Of a DNA stretch of 64,000 bases, positions 47,331 to 59,793 are shown one piece after another (position 1 is the first letter of the stretch; every line of letters begins with the position of its first letter). Source of the DNA: Thunnus maccoyii (taxonomy: Eukaryota > Chordata > Actinopteri > Scombriformes > Scombridae); NCBI RefSeq assembly GCF_910596095.1, contig NC_056534.1, forward strand, positions 12,595,490-12,659,489. The letters are read 5' to 3'. The position numbers and the translations under genes are program-made. The notes below the pieces were generated by a model. The model searched no databases. It was not told the DNA's origin and saw only the letters and a program-made list of their open reading frames with translations.

Positions 47331-47772
47331 GACGTGACCCTGGCCTGATATAAACACTCCCGTACAGCAGGAGGCAGTATACATTTCCTAGTATTGGACC
47401 ATAGGAAGTGCTTTCAAAGACGCAGTATCGTGTTGTCGTTCGCTGTTCGTTTGAGGACCTGGTCGTGTTCCTAAACTTGGCAATGATGGCTGTACTGACT
47501 TAAAGAAAACCAACAGCTTGGCTTTTTTTTATACATCTTCACCTATCGTCGGTTAATGTGGGATTTCGAGTTCAAGTCTTCATTTTTGTGTCTGCACTGA
47601 GTGAGTTAAGCCGTCCGTTAGCCACCTAGCACTGAAGCTAATGTGGGCCAGCTAACGTTTGTTAGCGAAGACAAGCTATATTCCTTCCCATTAATCCCAT
47701 CCAAGAGACTGTGTGAGCGAATATATTTTAACGTTTTTGAGTTGATACCGTTGTAACCAGCCGAGGGAAACA
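47331..47772. promoter_or_regulatory. Shared head-to-head promoter region pcm1/sart1
   Basis: The divergent starts of pcm1 and sart1 are close, and this stretch must carry the sart1 5'UTR and probably promoter elements for both. It has more CpG dinucleotides than the surrounding introns and no evident TATA box. A CTCF-like motif lies at 47364-47377. Confidence 0.45.
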
Positions 47773-50094
47773 ATGGGTTCGTCCAAGAAGCATAAGGAAA
47801 AAAGCCGCGACAAGGACACGGAGGAGCGCCGTCGCGAACATAAGAAACATCGCCACAAGGACCGAGAAAGAGATGCTTCTGACCGGGATGGGACTCGGAC
47901 TAAAGAGAAACGAAAACGCTCCGGGTCCAGGGAAAGGAGCGGACGAGAGGGCCGCAGCAAAGGCGAAAGGAGCAGTGGGGAGCCACGGGTGAAGAAAGAG
48001 AAAGTTGATCTCGGATATGAGGAAGGCAATACAGAGGTGGAACCTCAGTCTGCAAGCGGAGATGTATCGCTCAGCATTGAGGAGACAAACAAACTTAGAG
48101 CCAAGCTGGGTCTGAAGCCCCTGGAATTAAATGAGAACAAAAAGGAGCTTGGCACCAAAGAGGACCCAGTGGTGGCTGAGACCATCAACCCAGTTCTCAT
48201 CCAGAAGCAGAAAGATATGAGAGAGAAGCTTGCAGCTATGAAAGAGAAACGCATCCAGAACCAGAAATTGGGAAAAGTCAAGTCCCTAGCAGATGATGAT
48301 TGGCTGGATGACACCGCTGCTTGGGTGGAAAAAAGCAGGAAAATGGCTAAAGAAAAAGAAATGGCAGAGAAAAGAGCCAAGCTTCTGGAAGAGATGGATG
48401 AGGAGTTTGGTGTCAGCAGTCTGGTTGAGGAGGAGTTTGGACAAAGCAGGAAGGATGCCTATACATCTGGAGATCTAAAGGGACTCAAAGTACAGCACAA
48501 GGTGGAATCCTTCAATGAGGGCCAGACTGTCATCCTGACACTGCAAGACAAAGGTGTGCTTGAGGAGGAGGAAGATGTTCTTGTAAATGTGGGACTGGTG
48601 GACAAGGAAAAAGCAGAAAAGAATGTGGAGTTAAAAAAGAAAAAGCCAGATTACAAGCCCTATGAAGAAGAGGAGAGTGTGGATGACATGGTTACGTTTA
48701 AGTCCCACTCTGTACTGTCAAAGTATGATGAGGAGATTGAGGGCGAAAAGAAAAAGAGCTTCCGGCTGAATACAGGGGGCTTCGCTGATGGAGAGCGGGA
48801 GCGGGAGCTCCAGGCCATAAAAGAGGCTCTACGAAATCAGGCTCAGTCTTTGGAAATGCCCTCTCTCACTATTGCATCAGAGTACTACACGCCTGAGGAA
48901 ATGGTCGGCTTTAAAAAAACAAAACGCCGTGTGAAGAAGATCAGAAAGAAGGAGAAGCAGACAGTTGGAGTTGAACATCTTGATGACACTCGGAGTTCTG
49001 ATTTTGGCTCCAGGTCACGTGGCCGAGGCCGCAGACCGGTGGACGAGGACGGTGAGGAAGTTAAAGAGGAGGAGGAGAGCAGAATACCAAATGTTGTCCC
49101 CCAAATGTCTGATGACATCAGGATGGCAGAAATGGACATAAGTGAAGACGAAGACTTTACACCCCCTGAGCCTGCTGTAATTGAGGAGGACGAGGCAGAG
49201 CAGGAGCTGCAGAAACAACTGGAGAAGCAGAGGAAGCTAAAGCAAAAGCAGCTTCTCAAAGACTCTGGGGAGAAGGTGGCAGAGCAGATTAAAGTGCTTG
49301 GTAAAGATGACCATGACAATGATCCTGAGAAGAGGAACAACATCGTTTTCAACGCGACCTCTGAGTTTTGCAGAACTCTGGGTGACATTCCAACTTATGG
49401 CCTGTCAGGCAACAGAGAGGACCAAGAGGATATTATGGATTTTGAACAGGAGGAAGAGAAAGATGATGCTGGAAATTCAGATTCAGATATGGACGAGAAT
49501 GTTGGGTGGAGCACAGTTAACTTGGATGAAGAGCAGAAACAACCAGACTTCTCCACAGCCTCTGCCACCATTTTGGATGAAGAGCCCATTGTCAACTCTG
49601 GGCTTGCTGCTGCCTTGCTGTTGTGCAAAAACAAAGGTCTTTTGGACACTCAAATGCAGAAGGTCGCCCGTGTCAGAGCACCAAAAGGCGCCCTGCCCAA
49701 CGACAACTACTGCATCGAGGACAAGATGGGCTTCGATGACAAGTACAGTCGCCGAGAAGAATACAGAGGCTTCACCCAAGATTTCAAGGAGAAGGATAGC
49801 TATAAACCTGACGTCAAAATTGAGTATGTGGATGAGTCTGGGCGGAAGCTGACCCCAAAAGAAGCTTTCAGGCAGCTTTCACATCGCTTCCATGGGAAGG
49901 GCTCTGGAAAGATGAAAACTGAGAGGAGGATGAAAAAGCTTGAGGAGGAGGCGCTGCTGAAGAAGATGAGCAGCAGTGATACTCCTCTTGGGACGGTGGC
50001 TTTGCTTCAAGAGAAGCAGAAATCCCAGAAAACACCATATATTGTGCTTAGTGGGAGTGGGAAAAGTATGAATGCAAACACCATTACTAAATAA
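47773..50094 (+). CDS. sart1: SART1, U4/U6.U5 tri-snRNP-associated protein 1 (Snu66), intronless
   Basis: One uninterrupted frame of 773 codons; human SART1 is 800 aa. SART1/Snu66 is a tri-snRNP protein needed to activate the spliceosome. Seen: basic, Arg/Lys/Asp/Glu-rich N-terminus (residues 1-80, start MGSSKKHKEK); a HIND (Hub1/UBL5-binding) element at about 99-118, SLSIEETNKLRAKLGLKPLE; WLDDTAAWVEKSR; EEFGVSSLVEEEFGQ; FNATSEFCRTLG; the conserved C-terminal block from EDKMGFDDKYSRREEYRG to the very end KSMNANTITK, which matches the human C-terminus. The full length is present and no stop or frameshift interrupts it, so it looks functional. The human gene has many introns; this copy has none. 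The first ATG is in the family position. The neighbour pcm1 is divergent, osbp follows on the same strand. Confidence 0.96.
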   Translation: MGSSKKHKEKSRDKDTEERRREHKKHRHKDRERDASDRDGTRTKEKRKRSGSRERSGREGRSKGERSSGEPRVKKEKVDLGYEEGNTEVEPQSASGDVSLSIEETNKLRAKLGLKPLELNENKKELGTKEDPVVAETINPVLIQKQKDMREKLAAMKEKRIQNQKLGKVKSLADDDWLDDTAAWVEKSRKMAKEKEMAEKRAKLLEEMDEEFGVSSLVEEEFGQSRKDAYTSGDLKGLKVQHKVESFNEGQTVILTLQDKGVLEEEEDVLVNVGLVDKEKAEKNVELKKKKPDYKPYEEEESVDDMVTFKSHSVLSKYDEEIEGEKKKSFRLNTGGFADGERERELQAIKEALRNQAQSLEMPSLTIASEYYTPEEMVGFKKTKRRVKKIRKKEKQTVGVEHLDDTRSSDFGSRSRGRGRRPVDEDGEEVKEEEESRIPNVVPQMSDDIRMAEMDISEDEDFTPPEPAVIEEDEAEQELQKQLEKQRKLKQKQLLKDSGEKVAEQIKVLGKDDHDNDPEKRNNIVFNATSEFCRTLGDIPTYGLSGNREDQEDIMDFEQEEEKDDAGNSDSDMDENVGWSTVNLDEEQKQPDFSTASATILDEEPIVNSGLAAALLLCKNKGLLDTQMQKVARVRAPKGALPNDNYCIEDKMGFDDKYSRREEYRGFTQDFKEKDSYKPDVKIEYVDESGRKLTPKEAFRQLSHRFHGKGSGKMKTERRMKKLEEEALLKKMSSSDTPLGTVALLQEKQKSQKTPYIVLSGSGKSMNANTITK

Positions 50095-51412: not shown

Positions 51413-52340
51413 GTAAGTGTCATGAAAATAAGAACCTATAATGTCAACAATTATATTTAACACAGAAACGCAGAGAGAGTTGCACAGTTAAAATAATTGT
51501 AAACATCGTCTACGACGCGTCAGCTTGTTTGACAGCTTCCTGTTGTTTAAGTTAGCTAGCGAGCTTAGTGACGGACAGTTAGCTTTGATGCTTGGAAACG
51601 GTATCGTGTTCCTCGAAGTACTTCTCAGAATCCTTTACTTGGCACCTGTATGTTATCCTGGCAAAGAACTGGTGGGTTAAGATGACTTTTCAATAGCGAG
51701 CTGTGTTTTTTAGTTTCCGATAGAACGTAGTAAATGTTAGCTAAACAGATTATCAGGAGTCATGTCAGCACTCAATTATTTGTTGCTGTGTGTTATATCT
51801 TGTAGATTTCACGTTAAAGTAAATTTCAAGCTGCAAGCTAGTAAGAGGGACATGATGGAAACAGATCTTCGTGCTAATCGCCTTCCTTTACTTAGCGTTC
51901 ATAGCTGTTGTCAAGTGTGGATCATCCGGCATCCATTCATATCACGGTACATTCGACCAATTTCAGCCATGATTTTGTAGGTATTTTTATGTCTGATTTC
52001 ATTATAAATCATCACAAAGGATACGCAGTAGGCTGGTATCATACACTGTACACAATATTTAATTATACCTGAGGCCAAGGATTTATAAACTGAACGGTGT
52101 CATTATAGAATGACATAAAACAGTTTTGACTCTTCAGTAGTTAATAAGCGGTGACACACCAGTTTACTCTGTAATGCAAATGTCTGTAGTCACAAGACCA
52201 GTTTATTTGCTCACTTCACGTGTCATATGTACATTGAGCAGACTTAGTTTGCCCAACTATGAAGTGTCTGTGTTAATCATAATTAGATTTGTTATGTCCA
52301 CAGGCTCTAACTTCACCCAGTGAGACCACAGGCTGTTGTG

Positions 52341-55300
52341 ATGTCAGAGCCTAAGCCCCCTACTCCAACCGCTGGAGACACATACAAAGGTTGGCTCTTC
52401 AAATGGACCAACTACATAAAAGGTTACCAGAGACGCTGGTTTGTTCTAAGCAATGGACTGCTGTCTTATTACAGGTAAGTCATGTTGCATATTGGGGCTG
52501 CAAGTAATGATTATTTTTAGATTAGATTAATCTGTCTGTTATTTTTATAATTAACTGATTAATCGCCTAGTCTTAAAAATGTCTGGAAATAGTGAAAAAT
52601 GCACATCACAATTATCCAGAACCTGAGGTGTCATGTTTTGTCTGACCACATGTCTTGTGCAGATTCTTTAGGCTTTTTGAAGGCCATTTTACAGAGCAGT
52701 AAATAGTTCTTAATTAAAGAACACTACTTGCATCATTATGAAAAAATAAACAGTAGCCTTACAAGAAAAAAGTTAAATGGTTAGATAATATTTCTTATAG
52801 GGCTGCAACTAATGATTGTTTTCATTATTGATTAATCTGTCAGTGATTTTCTTGATTAGTCATTTGGTTTACCAAATGTCAGAAAATGGTGAAAAATGAT
52901 GATTATTGTTTCCCAAAGTGCAACCTCAAACCCCCGCAAGATATTCAGTTTACCATCATTAAGGACTAAAGAAACCAGAAAATATTCACATTTAAGAAGT
53001 TGGAACCAGGGCATTTTAGAATTTTTTCTTACAAAAATGATTAGTCAATAATCAAAATAGTTGGCAATTCATTTTCTCTTGATCAACTAATTGATTAATT
53101 GATTAATTATTGCAGTTCTAATTTCTTACTTCACAAAACAGTGATTTAGAAACTCAACATTTGACTGTCCTTCATTCTCTCTGTCTGCCTATAGGACCCA
53201 GGCAGAGATGGGTCACACATGCCGAGGCACCATCAACTTGGCCACGGCCAACATTGCCGTGGAGGACTCATGCAATTTTGTCATTTCAAATGGAGGGGCA
53301 CAAACCTACCATCTGAAGGCCAACTCAGAGGTAGAGCGCCAGCGCTGGATCACTGCTCTGGAGCTCGCCAAGGCAAAGGCCGTCCACATGCAGGCCGAAT
53401 CAGGTGAGCGGGTAGAAATGTTGGTAGGAGAATTCAGGAGACATAATATCAATATCCATAAAAAAGCCTAAATACCACCACCAGCAGCAGCTATGCCAGG
53501 CACAGATGTGTGTCTTTTTATATGTGCAAAGCATTTCCCTGTGACATTTTTTTGCTTTTTGGTTATCAAAAACATGTATGTTAGGTTAATTCTCCTGTCA
53601 ACACCCTTGACCAACGGCACTGGCACAGAACTGCAGTTGGTCCCTGGGTGCTGCACAGTGTCTTCCCACTTTTCCTAATAGTTAGGATGGGTTAAATGCA
53701 GAAATTGAATTTCATTGTACAACTATATGTGCATCAAATAAAGTATTTTTACCTACCTTACCTTAAATTATCTTCCCTTCCCTCTCTCAGATGACTCGGG
53801 TGATGATTGTCCTGCCGTGCCCCCCACCCCAGGACAGGGTGGAGGCCGTAACTCAGAAGTCCAGACCACACTACGCACACTAAGCAGCAAGGTGGAGGAC
53901 CTCAATACCTGCAATGATCTCATTGTCAAGCATGGGTCTGCCCTTCAAAGGTATCTATTATTAGATTGAGCAGTTTGACTACTCTAGAAAAAACATTATT
54001 ATCCAAGAAAAAGAAGGGTGGTGGTGTTTGTTTATTTATTTGTTCCCTTATTCATTGATCCCTTTACTCCACATACAGATCTTTGTCAGAACTGGAGGGG
54101 ATTCGTGTCGGAGGGGACATGGGGGAAAAGATCAGACAAGTTACAGAGAGGGCAACACTGTTCCGGATCACCTCTAATGCCATGATCAATGTAAGTCACC
54201 CACATGTCAATCATTGAGAAACGCATTATATGAACTAATGATTTATTTGCTGATTTGTTGCTCCTGTGTTTGCATGCTCCCCAAGGCATGTAGAGACTTC
54301 CTCTCCCTGGCTCAGAGCCACAGTAAGCGCTGGCAGAAGGCCTTACAGGTTGAACGAGACCAGAGGATAAGGTTGGAGGAGACTCTGGAGCAGCTGGCAA
54401 AACAACACAACCACTTGGAAAGAGCTTTCAGAGGAGCAACAGTTCTCCCTCCTTCATTCAGCAATGCTTCCTTAGGTAACAAAGGTACAGCTCTCATCCC
54501 CAAATGAGCTTTTGTCTTTGGAGCCTAGACTTTACTCAAAGCATATACGCCAAGCTACATACCAGTGCCAGTTAATTGAGGCCAGATCAAGCAGAAGCCT
54601 GCTCCAATTTACCATTTATTCTTCCACTGTCTCTCTTCGCTTTAGGTGGTGCTTCAGGAAAAGGTGATGCCAGTGATGAGGATGATGAAAATGAGTTCTT
54701 TGATGCTATGGAAGACCCAGCAGAGTTTATTACTGTCCCCGCTGATCCCAAGTATCACAGGTTAATAACTGGTTTTCTTTTTTAGATGTCAGTGATTTTA
54801 TTTCTTAATCTCAATCTTGTTTTTGTTTGTTTGTTTGTTTTTTATTTTCTCTCCCCCTGTGTTCTGTTTTTCTGTTAAATCTTGACTATCATGTTTGTCT
54901 GTCTTCCAGGAGATCTGGCAGCAATGTTAGTGGGCTCAGCAGTGAGACTGGAATGGACGATCAGTCTGTAAATGTATGTCTAGTTTGTGTTTTCGAGCAA
55001 TTACTAATTTGTTTTACTCTGTATTATCTTCTGCAGTAACTTAACCAGTAACACCCTTTTCCTTATCTTCCTGCAGTTTGATGAACTGTCTTTGGCATCC
55101 AATCCGGAGTCTCCACAGCCTCTTGAGCTAGAGCCAGTTAGACAAAGACGGACTCGTATCCCTGACAAGCCCAACTATTACCTCAATCTGTGGAGCATCA
55201 TGAAGAACTGTATTGGAAAGGAGCTCTCAAAGATACCAATGCCTGTAAGGAAGCTGTGCACTTGTTGTTATTAATATATGGAAACCAAGTCATTAGCAGT

Positions 55301-58300
55301 AACTACAATACTTCTCTCTACCTACCAGGTGAATTTCAACGAGCCCCTCTCAATGCTGCAACGTCTGTCTGAAGACCTGGAATACTACGAGCTGCTGGAT
55401 AAGGCTGCTAAATGTCAGAGCTCACTAGAGCAGATGTGTTATGTGGCCGCTTTCACAGTCTCTTCCTACTCCACCACCGTCCACCGCACAGGAAAACCCT
55501 TCAATCCTCTGCTGGGAGAAACTTTTGAGCTGGATCGGCTAAAAGACTGTGGCTACCGCTCCCTCTGTGAACAGGTATATTTGAGACAAACTGGAAATCA
55601 TTTAAAATCTTAAACAACTCGGAAAAGACACCATCAAACATTTAGCAAGTGACTTTTTGCAGACTAAAGTTGTATCAGTTCAGGCGATTTTTATTTGTTT
55701 CAACTACACGATCGCATTCAGGTTCGACCAGTTTTGGAAAAAAAAAACATGCTCAAATTATGTTTACGCCGTCATGCTCATTGGTTTGAATGCTCTATGC
55801 CGCCACATAATGGTGATGATCACATCTTGACTTTGCTACCTGTTCTCTCTCTCCTCTCCTCTCAGGTGAGTCACCACCCACCTGCTGCCGCTCACCATGC
55901 CATCTCTGAAAAGGGCTGGAGCCTCAGACAAGAAATTACCCTGGCCAGCAAGTTTAGAGGAAAATATCTTTCTATCATGCCCTTAGGTGAGTGTGTGTGT
56001 GTTTGCATAATTGCACAACAGAAGAGATGTTACACCTGTTTTTCATTTCAACATGTGAGAAGATGCCCGTGTCAATTCTGTGGTTGATTGAAGGTTAGTT
56101 TATTAGTCAGAGCAGAGGTTACCAACATGTTTGTTGTTGTGTACATACAAAAAAATCCTTGTCCCTGTGCGGTATCTCATTTGTAAGCTCAGTGTGTAGG
56201 ATATGTGGGATTCAAGTAAATTCATTTTGATTGAGCTGGTTAAAGACTGTTGTCTGTATCTCCAGGTTCTATCCAGTGCATATTTGATAAGAGTAACAAT
56301 CACTACTCTTGGAAGAAAGTGACTACAACGGTACACAACATTATTGTGGGGAAACTATGGATTGATCAGGTAACTTTTATGCTGATACATTATTGGTAAA
56401 AAGCAAAATTTCTATCATTAAGCATATGACACCACTCCCAACTATTTTTGGACAAATAAATGTCATAGTTGTCTTCATAGAATATTTTGCTGATCATTCT
56501 ACAATGTTAGCCCTTTAAGTTTTCAACAGCAAAACATTTAGTCTCTTTCCTTTGTTCCTTTCCAGTCAGGGGAGATAGACGTGGTGAACCACATGACAGG
56601 GGATCGTTGCCACCTCAAGTTTGCTCCCTACAGTTACTTCTCCAGAGACGTACCAAGAAAGGTGAGTTTTGATTTGTTCTTGTTAATATTGTTCACTGTA
56701 TTTAAAACCAGAGCTGATTCTTTATAGAATATGAAAAGTTTAATGATTTTAATTGAGATTTGTTTTCTATCCGGAATAATACTGAATACATTTCCCAAAT
56801 AAAGTTGATGCTTTCGTCCCTTGTTAGTCAGATTGTTTGGCTATGTCTGTCGTTAATTTATATGAAATTCTGTGACTAGATAGGCCAAGTAACAGCTTAT
56901 TTAATTTTAGTGTTAATTTGGGATTTTCGGCATTACCAGTGTTTTTGCAGTAACTTCATGCTTTGACATAATGATGATGATCTCTGTAGGCTAAAGAACT
57001 TGCGTTTAAATTTTAATTGATAGGAATAATGTTTTTTTTGGGGGGGTGTAAAAGCAAATGGCCAAGTCTTTCTTAAGTGTAGTGAAGTGGATTTGGTTTT
57101 CTGCTTCTGGTTTAAAATGATTTTAATTTAAAATAATATGAATATTACCTACTGCAGGTTATTTGATTACATTCTTAACTGAAACCTGTGTTTTGTCTTA
57201 AAGGTAACAGGAGTTGTAACAGATAAGGAGGGGAAAGCCCATTACGTGCTGTCGGGAACCTGGGATGAGAAGATGGAGTTTTCCAGGATAATGCAGAGCA
57301 GCAAAGGCGAGAACGGCACTGAAGGCAAACAGAGAACTGTATATCAGACCCTCAAAGCCAAAGAAATCTGGAAAAAGAACCCTTTACCGTAAGTTTATGT
57401 CATATAGATATTTGATAATATCGGAAAAAGTTGAAAGTGCTTTTAAACAAATAGAGCTGCACAGGCAAGGCTGTATTGTTGCTGTAGCTTTCTTCCTCCG
57501 ACCTTTTTATGATGTTGACTTTACAGAGAGGGAGCAGAGAACATGTACTACTTCTCCTCACTGGCCTTGACGCTCAATGAACCTGAAGAGGGAGTGGCGC
57601 CAACAGACAGTCGACGACGCCCTGACCAGAGATTAATGGAGGACGGCCGTTGGGATGAGGCCAACGCAGAGAAACAGAGGCTTGAAGAGAAACAGCGCAC
57701 GACCCGTCGAGAACGGGAGAGGGAAGCTGTTAAAGCAGCCAGTTCACCTGAGGAAGGTAAGAAAAGGAGGAGAACGAAAATAAAGCAGGGAAAAGGAAGA
57801 AGAGATGCTGTATGTGTCTTGTGTTTCTGTCTTGCAATGTTTCTCTGTCCATTCATCTTTTGTCCACTTTGTCTGTCTCGGTATACTTTGTCTGCTTGTC
57901 TTTGTCTCAACGCTAAGCTGTCACTGAGGATTCAATCAATGACTCACCCTTGAAAAGCAAGTACTCTTCTTAGTCTTTCCCACTCGAAATCTGCACTTTA
58001 CTTCGGCTTAAGTATAAAGAAATACATGTGAAATATGTCCGTGCGTGTAATAGGAAAGTGCGTAATGTCTTCTACATCCATCTTTTAAACACTCATTGAC
58101 CTTTTTACCATCCCTCCATCCGTTTCTGTTCCATTTAGCTGATGCAGGGGAGACTGGCACAGAAGCAAGTGAGGTTTCTGATGAAAGCAAGTATCACCTC
58201 ACAGCTTAACATATAATATGTACTTTTAAAGGTGCTTTGTGTAGCGTCTTAAGTGGGTAAATAAAAAAAATTACCCTAACATATCCATGGGAGATTGATT

Positions 58301-59793
58301 GGCTTGTTTTCTCAATACCAGTGACCTAACAATTACTTAAACATGTGCTGGATGACATTAGGATTTTAAAACTTTCAAAACTCAAGCTGTTTTGTAACAA
58401 GGTCACATCATTTCTTCCTTAAGTATCTTCAGTTGTTTGGTCACGGTGGTCAGAGCTACAAGTGACAAGTTGACAGAGATCATAGATGATTTAGATGCTC
58501 ATTTAACATCAAATGAGACCAGCACTGATCAGATTTCCCACCTTATATCGGCCTCTAAATTGCATTTTTCCAAGTCAGATTAAATAGATAATTGTCTATT
58601 ATAATAGAAGTAGTTTTTTTAGTAATTTTATGGGTAACAGTATTGCTTCACTGTGCATCATTCAGTACAAAAGTAGTAAGAAAAAAAGGAAGAAGCAAAG
58701 GTCTCTTTTCTGTACAGTCACTGCACTGAGCTGTCAGTCATTTTGACAAACATATATTACTTAAGATGCTACACGCAGCAGTTTAAAAGTGAAAATAAAC
58801 AACAGATTGGTGTGGAATTTTCTGAGTTATGGATTGACTTGATTTTTTGTGTGCTGACGTTCAGCTGACACAGAGGACTCTCCCCCTCTTACGCCTGTTG
58901 CATGCAAGTAGCCCCTTAACACTTTCACTCATCCTTTGTATCATACCCCCTTCTTTTATGTCTCAAAGATTCATCCGTCATTCTTTTTTTTTTCCAGCCC
59001 CCTATGGACCATCACCCCTCCCTTATCTAAGCAAGTATTCTGATCATGATATAACATGTACAGTGTCATTACTGTATTTCAAAATTTATTTAATTTAGTT
59101 AAACCCCCCTTTTCATCTTCCATCATTTCCTCCTCACATCCTTTCTTAGTGGGAGGCAATGAAGGTCCTTATGAAGCTCCAGTGAAAAGCAAGTAACATC
59201 AGTGTTGCTCCGAGTATCCCTTGTTTTGTTTTTTTCATATTTAGATGCGTGTTTGTAGTCTTTAGTGAATCTAATAGAATATTGTAGCTGTAGAAGTGGT
59301 GCAATAAACCTAGTACTACAATAGTTTAGAATAGTATTTTATCTGTCTTTACTGTGGTCCTTGGCAGTCGTGAGCCTGGCTCTTATCACATGGTACATCA
59401 TAGAGGAAGTAAGTAATTGGTGATTTCATGGAGTACTTATCTATGATTTGCCTCCTGCATTTGGTTTCTGAAGACCAAGTAATCAGTAACAATGAATATA
59501 TTTATCTCTATCTTTTTAGTCAACCATCTGAGAGCATATCAGCTTAACTTAAGCATGATGCAGTATGTTTTCATGGCTCAGTGGCTTCATAACCCTCATC
59601 TAGGGCCCCTGTAAAGATTTCACTTGCTTAAAGATTCTTATCTCCTTCAGGCGCCCATCAAGACAATCATCAAGCGTTGTGGTTTGAGAAGATAGACGAT
59701 CCCGTATCTGGTGAGACCCTGCATGTCTACAAAGGAGGCTACTGGGAGACTAAGGATAGCGGCAGCTGGGACATGTGCCCTGATATCTTCTGA
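52341..59793 (+). CDS. osbp: Oxysterol-binding protein (OSBP subfamily)
   Basis: Constitutive coding exons: 52341-52474, 53195-53403, 53791-53950, 54079-54190, 54286-54475 (or 54484), 54646-54760, 54910-54973, 55077-55244, 55329-55574, 55866-55986, 56266-56369, 56566-56661, 57204-57388, 57527-57756, 59651-59793; 758 aa without optional exons. OSBP exchanges sterol for PI4P at ER-Golgi contacts. Seen: PH domain at residues 15-108 ([20 protein letters not shown]), coiled-coil region about 145-255, FFAT motif EFFDAME at 285-291 for VAP binding, and the sterol-binding domain with signature EQVSHHPP at 465-472, split by an intron. The PH and core look like OSBP1; [19 protein letters not shown] and the C-terminal YKGGYWE resemble OSBP2, so the paralogue call is not certain. 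The Gly/Ala-rich leader of human OSBP is absent. A cluster of alternative small exons precedes the last exon. Confidence 0.85.
52494..53117 (+). repeat. Fold-back repeat copies 8 (partial) and 9
   Basis: Copy 8 at about 52494-52610 and copy 9 at about 52799-53117 (GGGCTGCAACTAATGATTGT to AATTATTGCAGTTC). They fill most of the osbp intron between 52474 and 53195, ending about 80 bases before the next exon. Confidence 0.55.
57918..57960 (+). other. osbp: osbp alternative exon A (43 nt)
   Basis: Acceptor CGCTAAG, donor AGCAA|GTACTC. Spliced after 57756 it reads [14 protein letters not shown] and leaves two bases (AA). Its start (CTGTCACTGAGGATTC) is clearly related to exon C (CTGACACAGAGGACTC), which points to exon duplication. 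Confidence 0.65.
58139..58190 (+). other. osbp: osbp alternative exon B (52 nt)
   Basis: Acceptor CCATTTAG behind a pyrimidine stretch, donor AGCAA|GTATCA. Reads [17 protein letters not shown] and leaves AA. A second good donor inside it, GCAA|GTGAGG at 58168/58169, would give a 30-nt form with a different exit phase that joins straight to the last exon. Confidence 0.65.
58865..58907 (+). other. osbp: osbp alternative exon C (43 nt)
   Basis: Acceptor GACGTTCAG, donor TGCAA|GTAGCC. Reads [14 protein letters not shown] and leaves AA. Same length and phase as exon A, with a similar 5' half. Confidence 0.65.
58998..59034 (+). other. osbp: osbp alternative exon D (37 nt)
   Basis: Very strong polypyrimidine tract and TTTCCAG acceptor, donor AGCAA|GTATTC. 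Reads [12 protein letters not shown] and leaves AA. Only 90 nt of intron separate it from exon C, which may be too short for efficient splicing of C to D. Confidence 0.65.
59150..59192 (+). other. osbp: osbp alternative exon E (43 nt)
   Basis: Strong pyrimidine tract and CTTTCTTAG acceptor, donor AGCAA|GTAACA. Reads [14 protein letters not shown] and leaves AA. Shares the terminal Lys-Ser codons with exon A. Confidence 0.65.
59368..59408 (+). other. osbp: osbp shared frame-restoring exon F (41 nt)
   Basis: Acceptor TTGGCAG, consensus donor GGAA|GTAAGT. It accepts the two bases left by any of exons A-E, reads [14 protein letters not shown] and leaves one base, which is the phase the last exon (59651) needs. 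It cannot be joined in frame directly to 57756. Confidence 0.65.

What the first reader, a model, noticed from the sequence alone, without database searches (positions are those of the whole stretch)
57757..59650. Cluster of five phase-matched alternative exons in osbp, predicted mutually exclusive
Seen: between coding exons 57527-57756 and 59651-59793 there are five small open segments (57918-57960, 58139-58190, 58865-58907, 58998-59034, 59150-59192), each with an acceptor and a donor. All have length 1 modulo 3, enter in phase 1, leave two bases, and end in GCAA directly before GT. They encode short linkers rich in Asp/Glu/Ser/Pro. A and C are alike at their start and A and E share their last codons, which suggests tandem exon duplication. 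Inference: the cell picks one of five linkers, or none, just before the conserved C-terminus of a sterol/PI4P transporter. I know of no such cluster described for OSBP.
Basis: partly seen in the sequence, partly recalled or inferred. Interest (0 to 1): 0.85.

Follow-up and report, generated by a model that had tools for sequence, protein, structure and literature searches.

The report
Five GC-donor cassette exons in osbp
A gene for a cholesterol-carrying protein, probably from a fish, holds five tiny optional exons in one intron, all apparently ending at the same rare type of splice site, and one of them survives in a second copy of the gene, so they are probably real switches that lengthen a flexible part of the protein.

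Summary
All five end in GCAAGTA, the core of a GC-AG donor. Ending each exon four bases earlier, before GC, gives 39, 48, 39, 33 and 39 nt, all symmetric in phase 1; all 32 combinations then keep the normal C-terminus. GCAAGTA occurs 10 times in 64 kb, five in this 1.9-kb intron, and all five close an open symmetric cassette (at most one in 2000 shuffled introns). A second osbp copy in the genome has one cassette homologous to A in its 293-nt intron: same length, same GC donor, 9 of 14 residues identical, E = 2.5e-7. So A is well supported; B-E rest on sequence logic. Mutual exclusion is not supported by frame. A zebrafish brain RNA-seq paper reports two unannotated osbp exons, position not stated in its text. 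No transcript data could be run. Inferred function: regulated acidic/Ser-Pro linkers in the lipid-binding domain.

The parts
57527..57756 (+). penultimate coding exon of osbp; ends in phase 1, GT donor
   Evidence: Pfam PF01237 and human OSBP chain 7v62_A; donor score 11.0
57918..57956 (+). cassette A, 39 nt, phase 1-1, [14 protein letters not shown] (first and last residue from split codons); donor |GCAAGTA at 57957
   Evidence: homologous exon A' with the same donor in the C22 copy, L004:8962-9000 minus strand, acceptor 7.2; A's own acceptor is weak (1.5)
58139..58186 (+). cassette B, 48 nt, phase 1-1, [17 protein letters not shown]; donor |GCAAGTA at 58187
   Evidence: acceptor score 8.5
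58139..58168 (+). possible short form of B, 30 nt, also 0 mod 3, ending at a GT donor (GTGAGG); the only GT cassette found in the intron with both site scores 8 or more
   Evidence: acceptor 8.5, donor 8.1
58865..58903 (+). cassette C, 39 nt, phase 1-1, [14 protein letters not shown]; donor |GCAAGTA at 58904; a TGCATG (recalled RBFOX motif) overlaps the donor at 58899
   Evidence: acceptor 5.4
58998..59030 (+). cassette D, 33 nt, phase 1-1, [12 protein letters not shown]; donor |GCAAGTA at 59031
   Evidence: acceptor 16.3, best in the intron
59150..59188 (+). cassette E, 39 nt, phase 1-1, [14 protein letters not shown]; donor |GCAAGTA at 59189
   Evidence: acceptor 7.8
59368..59408 (+). candidate 41-nt exon F that the GT-donor reading would need; judged probably not an exon
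   Evidence: acceptor 6.5, donor 8.5; nothing like it aligns in the C22 intron
59651..59793 (+). last coding exon, (G)[13 protein letters not shown]...CPDIF, stop

Best explanation
Five short alternative cassette exons lie in the last coding intron of an osbp gene (species not identified here; probably a fish). Each is spliced from a weak non-canonical GC donor (GCAAGTA) and is symmetric in phase 1. The default mRNA skips them all and gives the human-like C-terminus. When U1 is helped onto a weak GC donor by tissue-specific splicing factors, one or more cassettes are kept and insert 11-16 residues each of mostly acidic or Ser/Pro-rich linker between the penultimate exon's Glu/Arg-rich segment and the final segment (ALWFEK...CPDIF) of the lipid-binding ORD, without changing the rest. 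Shown: the anatomy, the frames, the non-random clustering, and the homologous cassette with the same donor in the second osbp copy. Inferred: that the RNA is spliced this way, that inclusion is regulated, and that the linker tunes lipid exchange or partner binding, perhaps by phosphorylation. Cassette A is probably the ancestral one; B-E were gained in this copy or lost from the other.
For: Donor: GCAAGTA is the only run of adjacent invariant columns when A-E are aligned with flanks (three other invariant columns stand alone). Its best pairing with U1 is at intron +3 to +7 or +8 counted from the GC. Under the GT register -1 is A and +5 is not G in 5 of 5. Frame: 0 mod 3 in 5 of 5 and all 32 combinations open, against a frameshift in 5 of 5 with GT donors. 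Chance: at most one such cassette in any of 2000 shuffled introns (post hoc). Composition: cassettes are 41-56% G+C, the rest of the intron 36%, the neighbouring exons 51 and 56%. Conservation: the C22 copy's 293-nt intron holds one cassette of 39 nt with AAA|GCAAGTA, AVDEDSLTDPSLKS against A's [14 protein letters not shown] (9 of 14 residues; blastn 57 nt, 75%, E 2.5e-7; local score 61, maximum 40 in 300 shuffles). All other pieces that align between the two introns are 23 nt or shorter with E 0.005 or more. The copies' last exons are 60% identical in protein, so A has diverged about as much as neighbouring coding sequence. Literature: two unannotated osbp exons appear in zebrafish telencephalon RNA-seq after injury (PMC8162057, one section and passages); grass carp OSBP1 has six database isoforms, two of which (797 and 784 aa) differ by 13 residues, the size of a 39-nt exon (PMC11286474, one section). 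Neither text seen locates the exons.
Against: No transcript evidence from this species. Donors are weak: none of the five (or A') has G at -1, whereas GC donors are said to keep the rest of the signal closer to consensus (PMC2490688). Their U1 duplex energy is -2.8 to -3.4 kcal/mol, against -9.5 for the exon before. A's acceptor scores 1.5. B-E have no counterpart in the C22 intron. osbp2 has no GCAAGTA in its 2039-nt intron at this place. Between A and A' changes are not concentrated at third positions (5, 2, 5 by position; 5 amino-acid-changing and 3 synonymous codons), so selection on the peptide itself is loose, and A's Ser-Pro is not kept in A' (Pro-Ser), against a conserved proline-directed site.
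Confidence: 0.77

Rival explanations
1. The reader's GT donors are used and one cassette is kept together with exon F (59368-59408). The cell then chooses no cassette or exactly one plus F; two cassettes give a stop or a shifted frame, so the choice is mutually exclusive.
For: Each of A-E plus F restores the frame, 5 of 5, and all 20 two-cassette readings (10 pairs, with and without F) lose the normal C-terminus. F has a good donor (8.5).
Against: The GT donors are poor, with +5 not G in 5 of 5. F by itself is an ordinary find: the window holds 27 GT cassettes (open in phase 1, 24-75 nt) with both scores 6 or more. No F-like block aligns in the C22 intron, where A' with a GT donor would shift the frame.
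Confidence: 0.05
2. The GT half of the GCAAGT tandem donor (a GYNNGY site) is used without F, alone or beside the GC half. The cassette then acts as a frame switch giving an OSBP without its last 46 residues, ending [12 protein letters not shown]; the stop lies in the last exon, so decay by the usual rule (recalled) is not expected.
For: GCAAGT fits GYNNGY, a known tandem donor whose two halves are four bases apart (PMC4267661); frame.
Against: PMC4267661 finds only about 20% of such human events regulated and argues that noise explains many (abstract and passages). The loss would remove the end of the ORD matched by Pfam. It does not explain the 0 mod 3 lengths in the GC register or the invariant GC.
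Confidence: 0.07
3. Only cassette A is a working exon; B-E are decayed or chance segments that share the 7-mer.
For: Only A has a clear homologue in the second copy. Six of ten pairs of cassettes show no significant likeness.
Against: All of B-E are open, symmetric and carry the full GCAAGTA; three of the four (B, D, E) have acceptor scores of 7.8-16.3, C 5.4. Decayed exons would not all be expected to stay open with intact donors.
Confidence: 0.15
4. The GCAAGTA copies are U1-binding or other RNA elements and not exon ends (decoy donors).
For: They are weak donors that could hold U1 without splicing.
Against: 5 of 5 close an open symmetric cassette behind an AG, and the homology with C22 runs through the whole open segment.
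Confidence: 0.04

Closest known systems
Snap23 microexon (mouse): short in-frame exon with a GC donor, promoted by QKI and RBFOX2 (PMC12064062; abstract and passages seen)
   Same: short symmetric exon, weak GC donor, in a membrane-traffic gene; changing GC to GT made inclusion complete in a minigene
   Different: a single exon, not an array; here there is no QKI motif ACTAAY in the intron and RBFOX-type TGCATG only once, at the background rate
C. elegans let-2 alternative exons with a GC donor (described in PMC2490688, part 1 of 2 of the text seen)
   Same: a GC donor needed for regulated choice of alternative exons
   Different: a nematode collagen gene with one GC donor described
Clusters of mutually exclusive exons (PMC5740500, passages and section 6 seen)
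   Same: several alternative exons side by side in one gene; human clusters of three to ten exist (283 MXEs in 71 clusters)
   Different: here every combination is in frame, likeness is weak, and all five donors are GC
GYNNGY tandem donors (PMC4267661, abstract and passages seen)
   Same: GCAAGT holds two possible donors four bases apart
   Different: in that study nearly all such events in coding regions shift the frame (Table 4); here only the GC half keeps it
Ser/Pro phosphorylation motif in the ORD of ORP4L (OSBP2) (PMC6440634, abstract and passages seen)
   Same: Ser/Pro-rich loop in the lipid-binding domain of the paralogue; phosphorylation enhances cholesterol extraction
   Different: placed in a loop interrupting beta-sheet 16, by residue number upstream of this intron (my inference, not aligned); not described as an optional exon in the passages seen

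Membership tests
GC-AG introns (U2 type) | GC at the 5' end, AG at the 3' end, AAGT at +3 to +6 | tested here: met
   GCAAGTA in 5 of 5 and in A'; AG before each cassette and the last exon
GC-AG introns (U2 type) | otherwise strong donor context (typical, not defining; G at -1 recalled) | tested here: not met
   -1 is A, A, T, A, A (and A in A'); U1 duplex -2.8 to -3.4 kcal/mol
GC-AG introns (U2 type) | observed splicing at the GC | not testable with these tools
   no RNA data available
Mutually exclusive exon cluster | one and only one exon kept | not testable with these tools
   needs junction reads
Mutually exclusive exon cluster | joint inclusion blocked by frame | tested here: not met
   32 of 32 combinations open with GC donors; with GT donors single inclusion already fails without F
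Mutually exclusive exon cluster | exons homologous and of similar length | tested here: inconclusive
   33-48 nt; 4 of 10 pairs p 0.02 or less, uncorrected
Microexons | at most 27-30 nt (some authors 51 nt) | tested here: inconclusive
   33-48 nt with GC donors; size limits from abstracts listed
OSBP (oxysterol-binding protein) | PH domain and Oxysterol_BP domain, closest to OSBP | tested here: met
   PF00169 and PF01237 exons; C-terminal part matches human OSBP 7v62 at E 2.7e-47, next ORP2 at 1.2e-12; no OSBP2 chain was among the hits, so OSBP against OSBP2 rests on the C9 gene being the more distant copy

The most novel reading that the evidence does not exclude
A vertebrate exon array gated as a whole by one shared kind of weak donor: five GC-AG cassettes free to combine into up to 32 in-frame OSBP linkers, so that a single change in U1 or GC-donor recognition (for example after brain injury) shifts lipid exchange by grading the length and phosphorylation of the linker.
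Probability: 0.15. Interest if true: 0.72.

Novelty: new variant of a known kind. Interest (0 to 1): 0.6.

Why it matters
GC donors are about 0.8% of splice junctions in human protein-coding genes (PMC7242645, passages); five in a row in one intron, one kept in a second gene copy, would be a natural test bed for how weak donors are regulated. Gene finders that allow only GT would miss these exons or put their ends four bases off, in the wrong frame. OSBP is a central sterol/PI4P exchanger, so optional linkers inside its lipid-binding domain would be a new control point.

Tried and rejected
Exon F as partner exon (GT reading): rejected for poor GT donors and no counterpart in C22. An alternative acceptor for the last exon at 59634, which by my reading would also restore the frame: score 3.0, not pursued. 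Relatives of the penultimate exon's peptide in viral contigs and genome contigs: none. Rfam: no match in the window at gathering scores. Docking/selector RNA structure: one inverted repeat pair of 15 nt (minimum length 14), no support. Regulator motifs: TCTT (23 against 11.9 expected) and YCAY (46 against 31.4) are above the window rate, the other seven of nine patterns near or below it; the intron is pyrimidine-rich, so this is not evidence. Synteny to date the osbp duplication: of 940 window reading frames of 35 aa or more, only ones in the osbp region (52311-59790) matched in seven loci covering about 69 kb of C22, so the duplication is undated; a SART1 search of the genome did not complete. 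Ten paper searches (one search found nothing; 15, 37 and 65 matched more papers than they listed): no title or opening of an abstract in the listings describes a cluster of alternative exons in OSBP. The library lacks most subscription journals.

Splice matrices and motif names were recalled and approximate. Donor positions for the other osbp exons were set by eye and several are one base off. In the codon comparison the flanking bases G and GC were supplied to both copies (the C22 last exon really begins GT); the peptides quoted come.
Full report
What is there. The window lies in a 782-Mb genome of an unnamed organism (G000, contig C2). On the + strand around 53-60 kb it holds a gene with a PH domain exon and Oxysterol_BP exons, whose C-terminal 123 residues match human OSBP far better than the other ORPs with solved structures (7v62 E 2.7e-47, ORP2 1.2e-12). 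The human chain has no insert at the point in question. The intron between the last two coding exons is 57757-59650.

The frame problem. The exon before leaves one base and the last exon needs that phase, so a single cassette shifts the frame; all five then end [16 protein letters not shown]. A further 41-nt segment (59368-59408) would restore it. The GT donors also score badly (1.0-4.2, against 11.0 for the exon before, approximate recalled matrix).

The resolution. All five segments end in GCAAGTA, the only run of adjacent invariant columns in their alignment. Read as a GC-AG donor, the exons end four bases earlier and are 39, 48, 39, 33 and 39 nt: symmetric, phase 1 in and out. All 32 combinations read on to CPDIF-stop. 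In U1 duplex calculations the best pairing is at +3 to +7 (A, C, E) or +8 (B, D) of the GC register, weak at -2.8 to -3.4 kcal/mol. None has G at -1, which counts against strong use and fits regulated or low inclusion.

Is it chance? GCAAGTA occurs ten times in the window and five times in this intron (P about 6e-7). All five in the intron close an open, symmetric cassette, as against one of five elsewhere. Two thousand shuffled introns gave 0.0275 on average and never more than one. The motif and limits were set after seeing the segments. Cassettes are richer in G+C (41-56%) than the rest of the intron (36%).

Independent test. The genome has two further matches to the penultimate exon: a second osbp on C22 and a more distant, osbp2-like gene on C9. 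The C22 gene's intron at this point is 293 nt and has one cassette: 39 nt, AAA|GCAAGTA, AVDEDSLTDPSLKS, against A's [14 protein letters not shown]. The match (57 nt, 75%, E 2.5e-7; score 61 against a maximum of 40 in 300 shuffles) runs from the acceptor AG through the exon past the donor; every other aligned piece between the introns is 23 nt or shorter with E 0.005 or more. Nine of 14 residues agree, like the 60% of the last exon. Five codons differ in amino acid and three are synonymous: length, frame, most acid residues and donor are kept, the rest of the peptide drifts. This is the strongest evidence that A is an exon, that the GC is its end, and that F is not needed. B-E have no significant match to A' except C weakly (p 0.023, uncorrected); they were gained here or lost there. 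The age of the duplication is not known (one search found no shared neighbours in about 69 kb).

Literature. GC donors make up 0.8% of junctions in human protein-coding genes, and genes with them are more prone to alternative splicing (PMC7242645, passages). The Snap23 microexon shows the mechanism proposed here: a weak GC donor helped by QKI and RBFOX2, and complete inclusion when C is changed to T (PMC12064062, passages). Zebrafish telencephalon RNA-seq found two unannotated osbp exons newly emerging on injury (PMC8162057, section 15 read), and grass carp OSBP1 has six database isoforms of 856, 849, 842, 797, 784 and 783 aa (PMC11286474, section 17 read). Neither text seen gives an exon position, so these are hints only. 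No listing from the ten paper searches showed a description of this array (titles and abstract openings only, some lists capped).

How it probably works. By default U1 does not hold the GC donors and the intron is removed whole (57757-59650: donor 11.0, acceptor 10.0). When a factor stabilises U1 on one GC donor, that cassette is kept and adds 11-16 residues. Since every combination is open, the system can be additive and need not choose one. The linkers are acidic (A-C, mildly E) or Pro-rich (C, D), and A, C and D contain SP or TP, though A' has lost A's SP. In the paralogue ORP4L, phosphorylation of a Ser/Pro loop of the same domain raises cholesterol extraction (PMC6440634, passages), which makes a similar role plausible but untested.

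Verdict. Real observation; corrected mechanism; cassette A about 0.9, all five about 0.77 to be real exons; mutual exclusion unsupported.

Noticed in passing
L005:8082-8099 (minus strand; osbp2-like gene on C9): Candidate 18-nt symmetric microexon (ECDNDSG, phase 1-1, GT donor 10.2, acceptor 5.1) in the same intron of the paralogue, so an optional acidic linker at this point may be older than the osbp/osbp2 split.
   Followed up: partly
58139-58168: Cassette B has a second, in-frame end at a good GT donor (30 nt), so B may have two lengths.
   Followed up: partly
59104-59122: A pyrimidine tract upstream of cassette E (CCCCCCTTTTC-TCTTCCA, 19 nt, 95%, E 0.005) resembles the tract just before A' in the C22 copy; with the shared last codons of A and E this hints that E arose from A.
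   Followed up: no
54470-54490: Two GT donors (TTAG|GTAACA and AAAG|GTACAG) lie 9 nt apart at the end of an upstream osbp exon, a possible in-frame three-residue alternative end (read by eye).
   Followed up: no
47746-50094: A SART-1 protein with a HIND motif is encoded in one uninterrupted reading frame (782 codons from stop to stop) upstream of osbp.
   Followed up: no
57757-59650: TCTT and YCAY motifs are above the window rate in this intron (23 against 11.9; 46 against 31.4), possibly PTB or NOVA sites (recalled motifs) or just pyrimidine-rich sequence.
   Followed up: no
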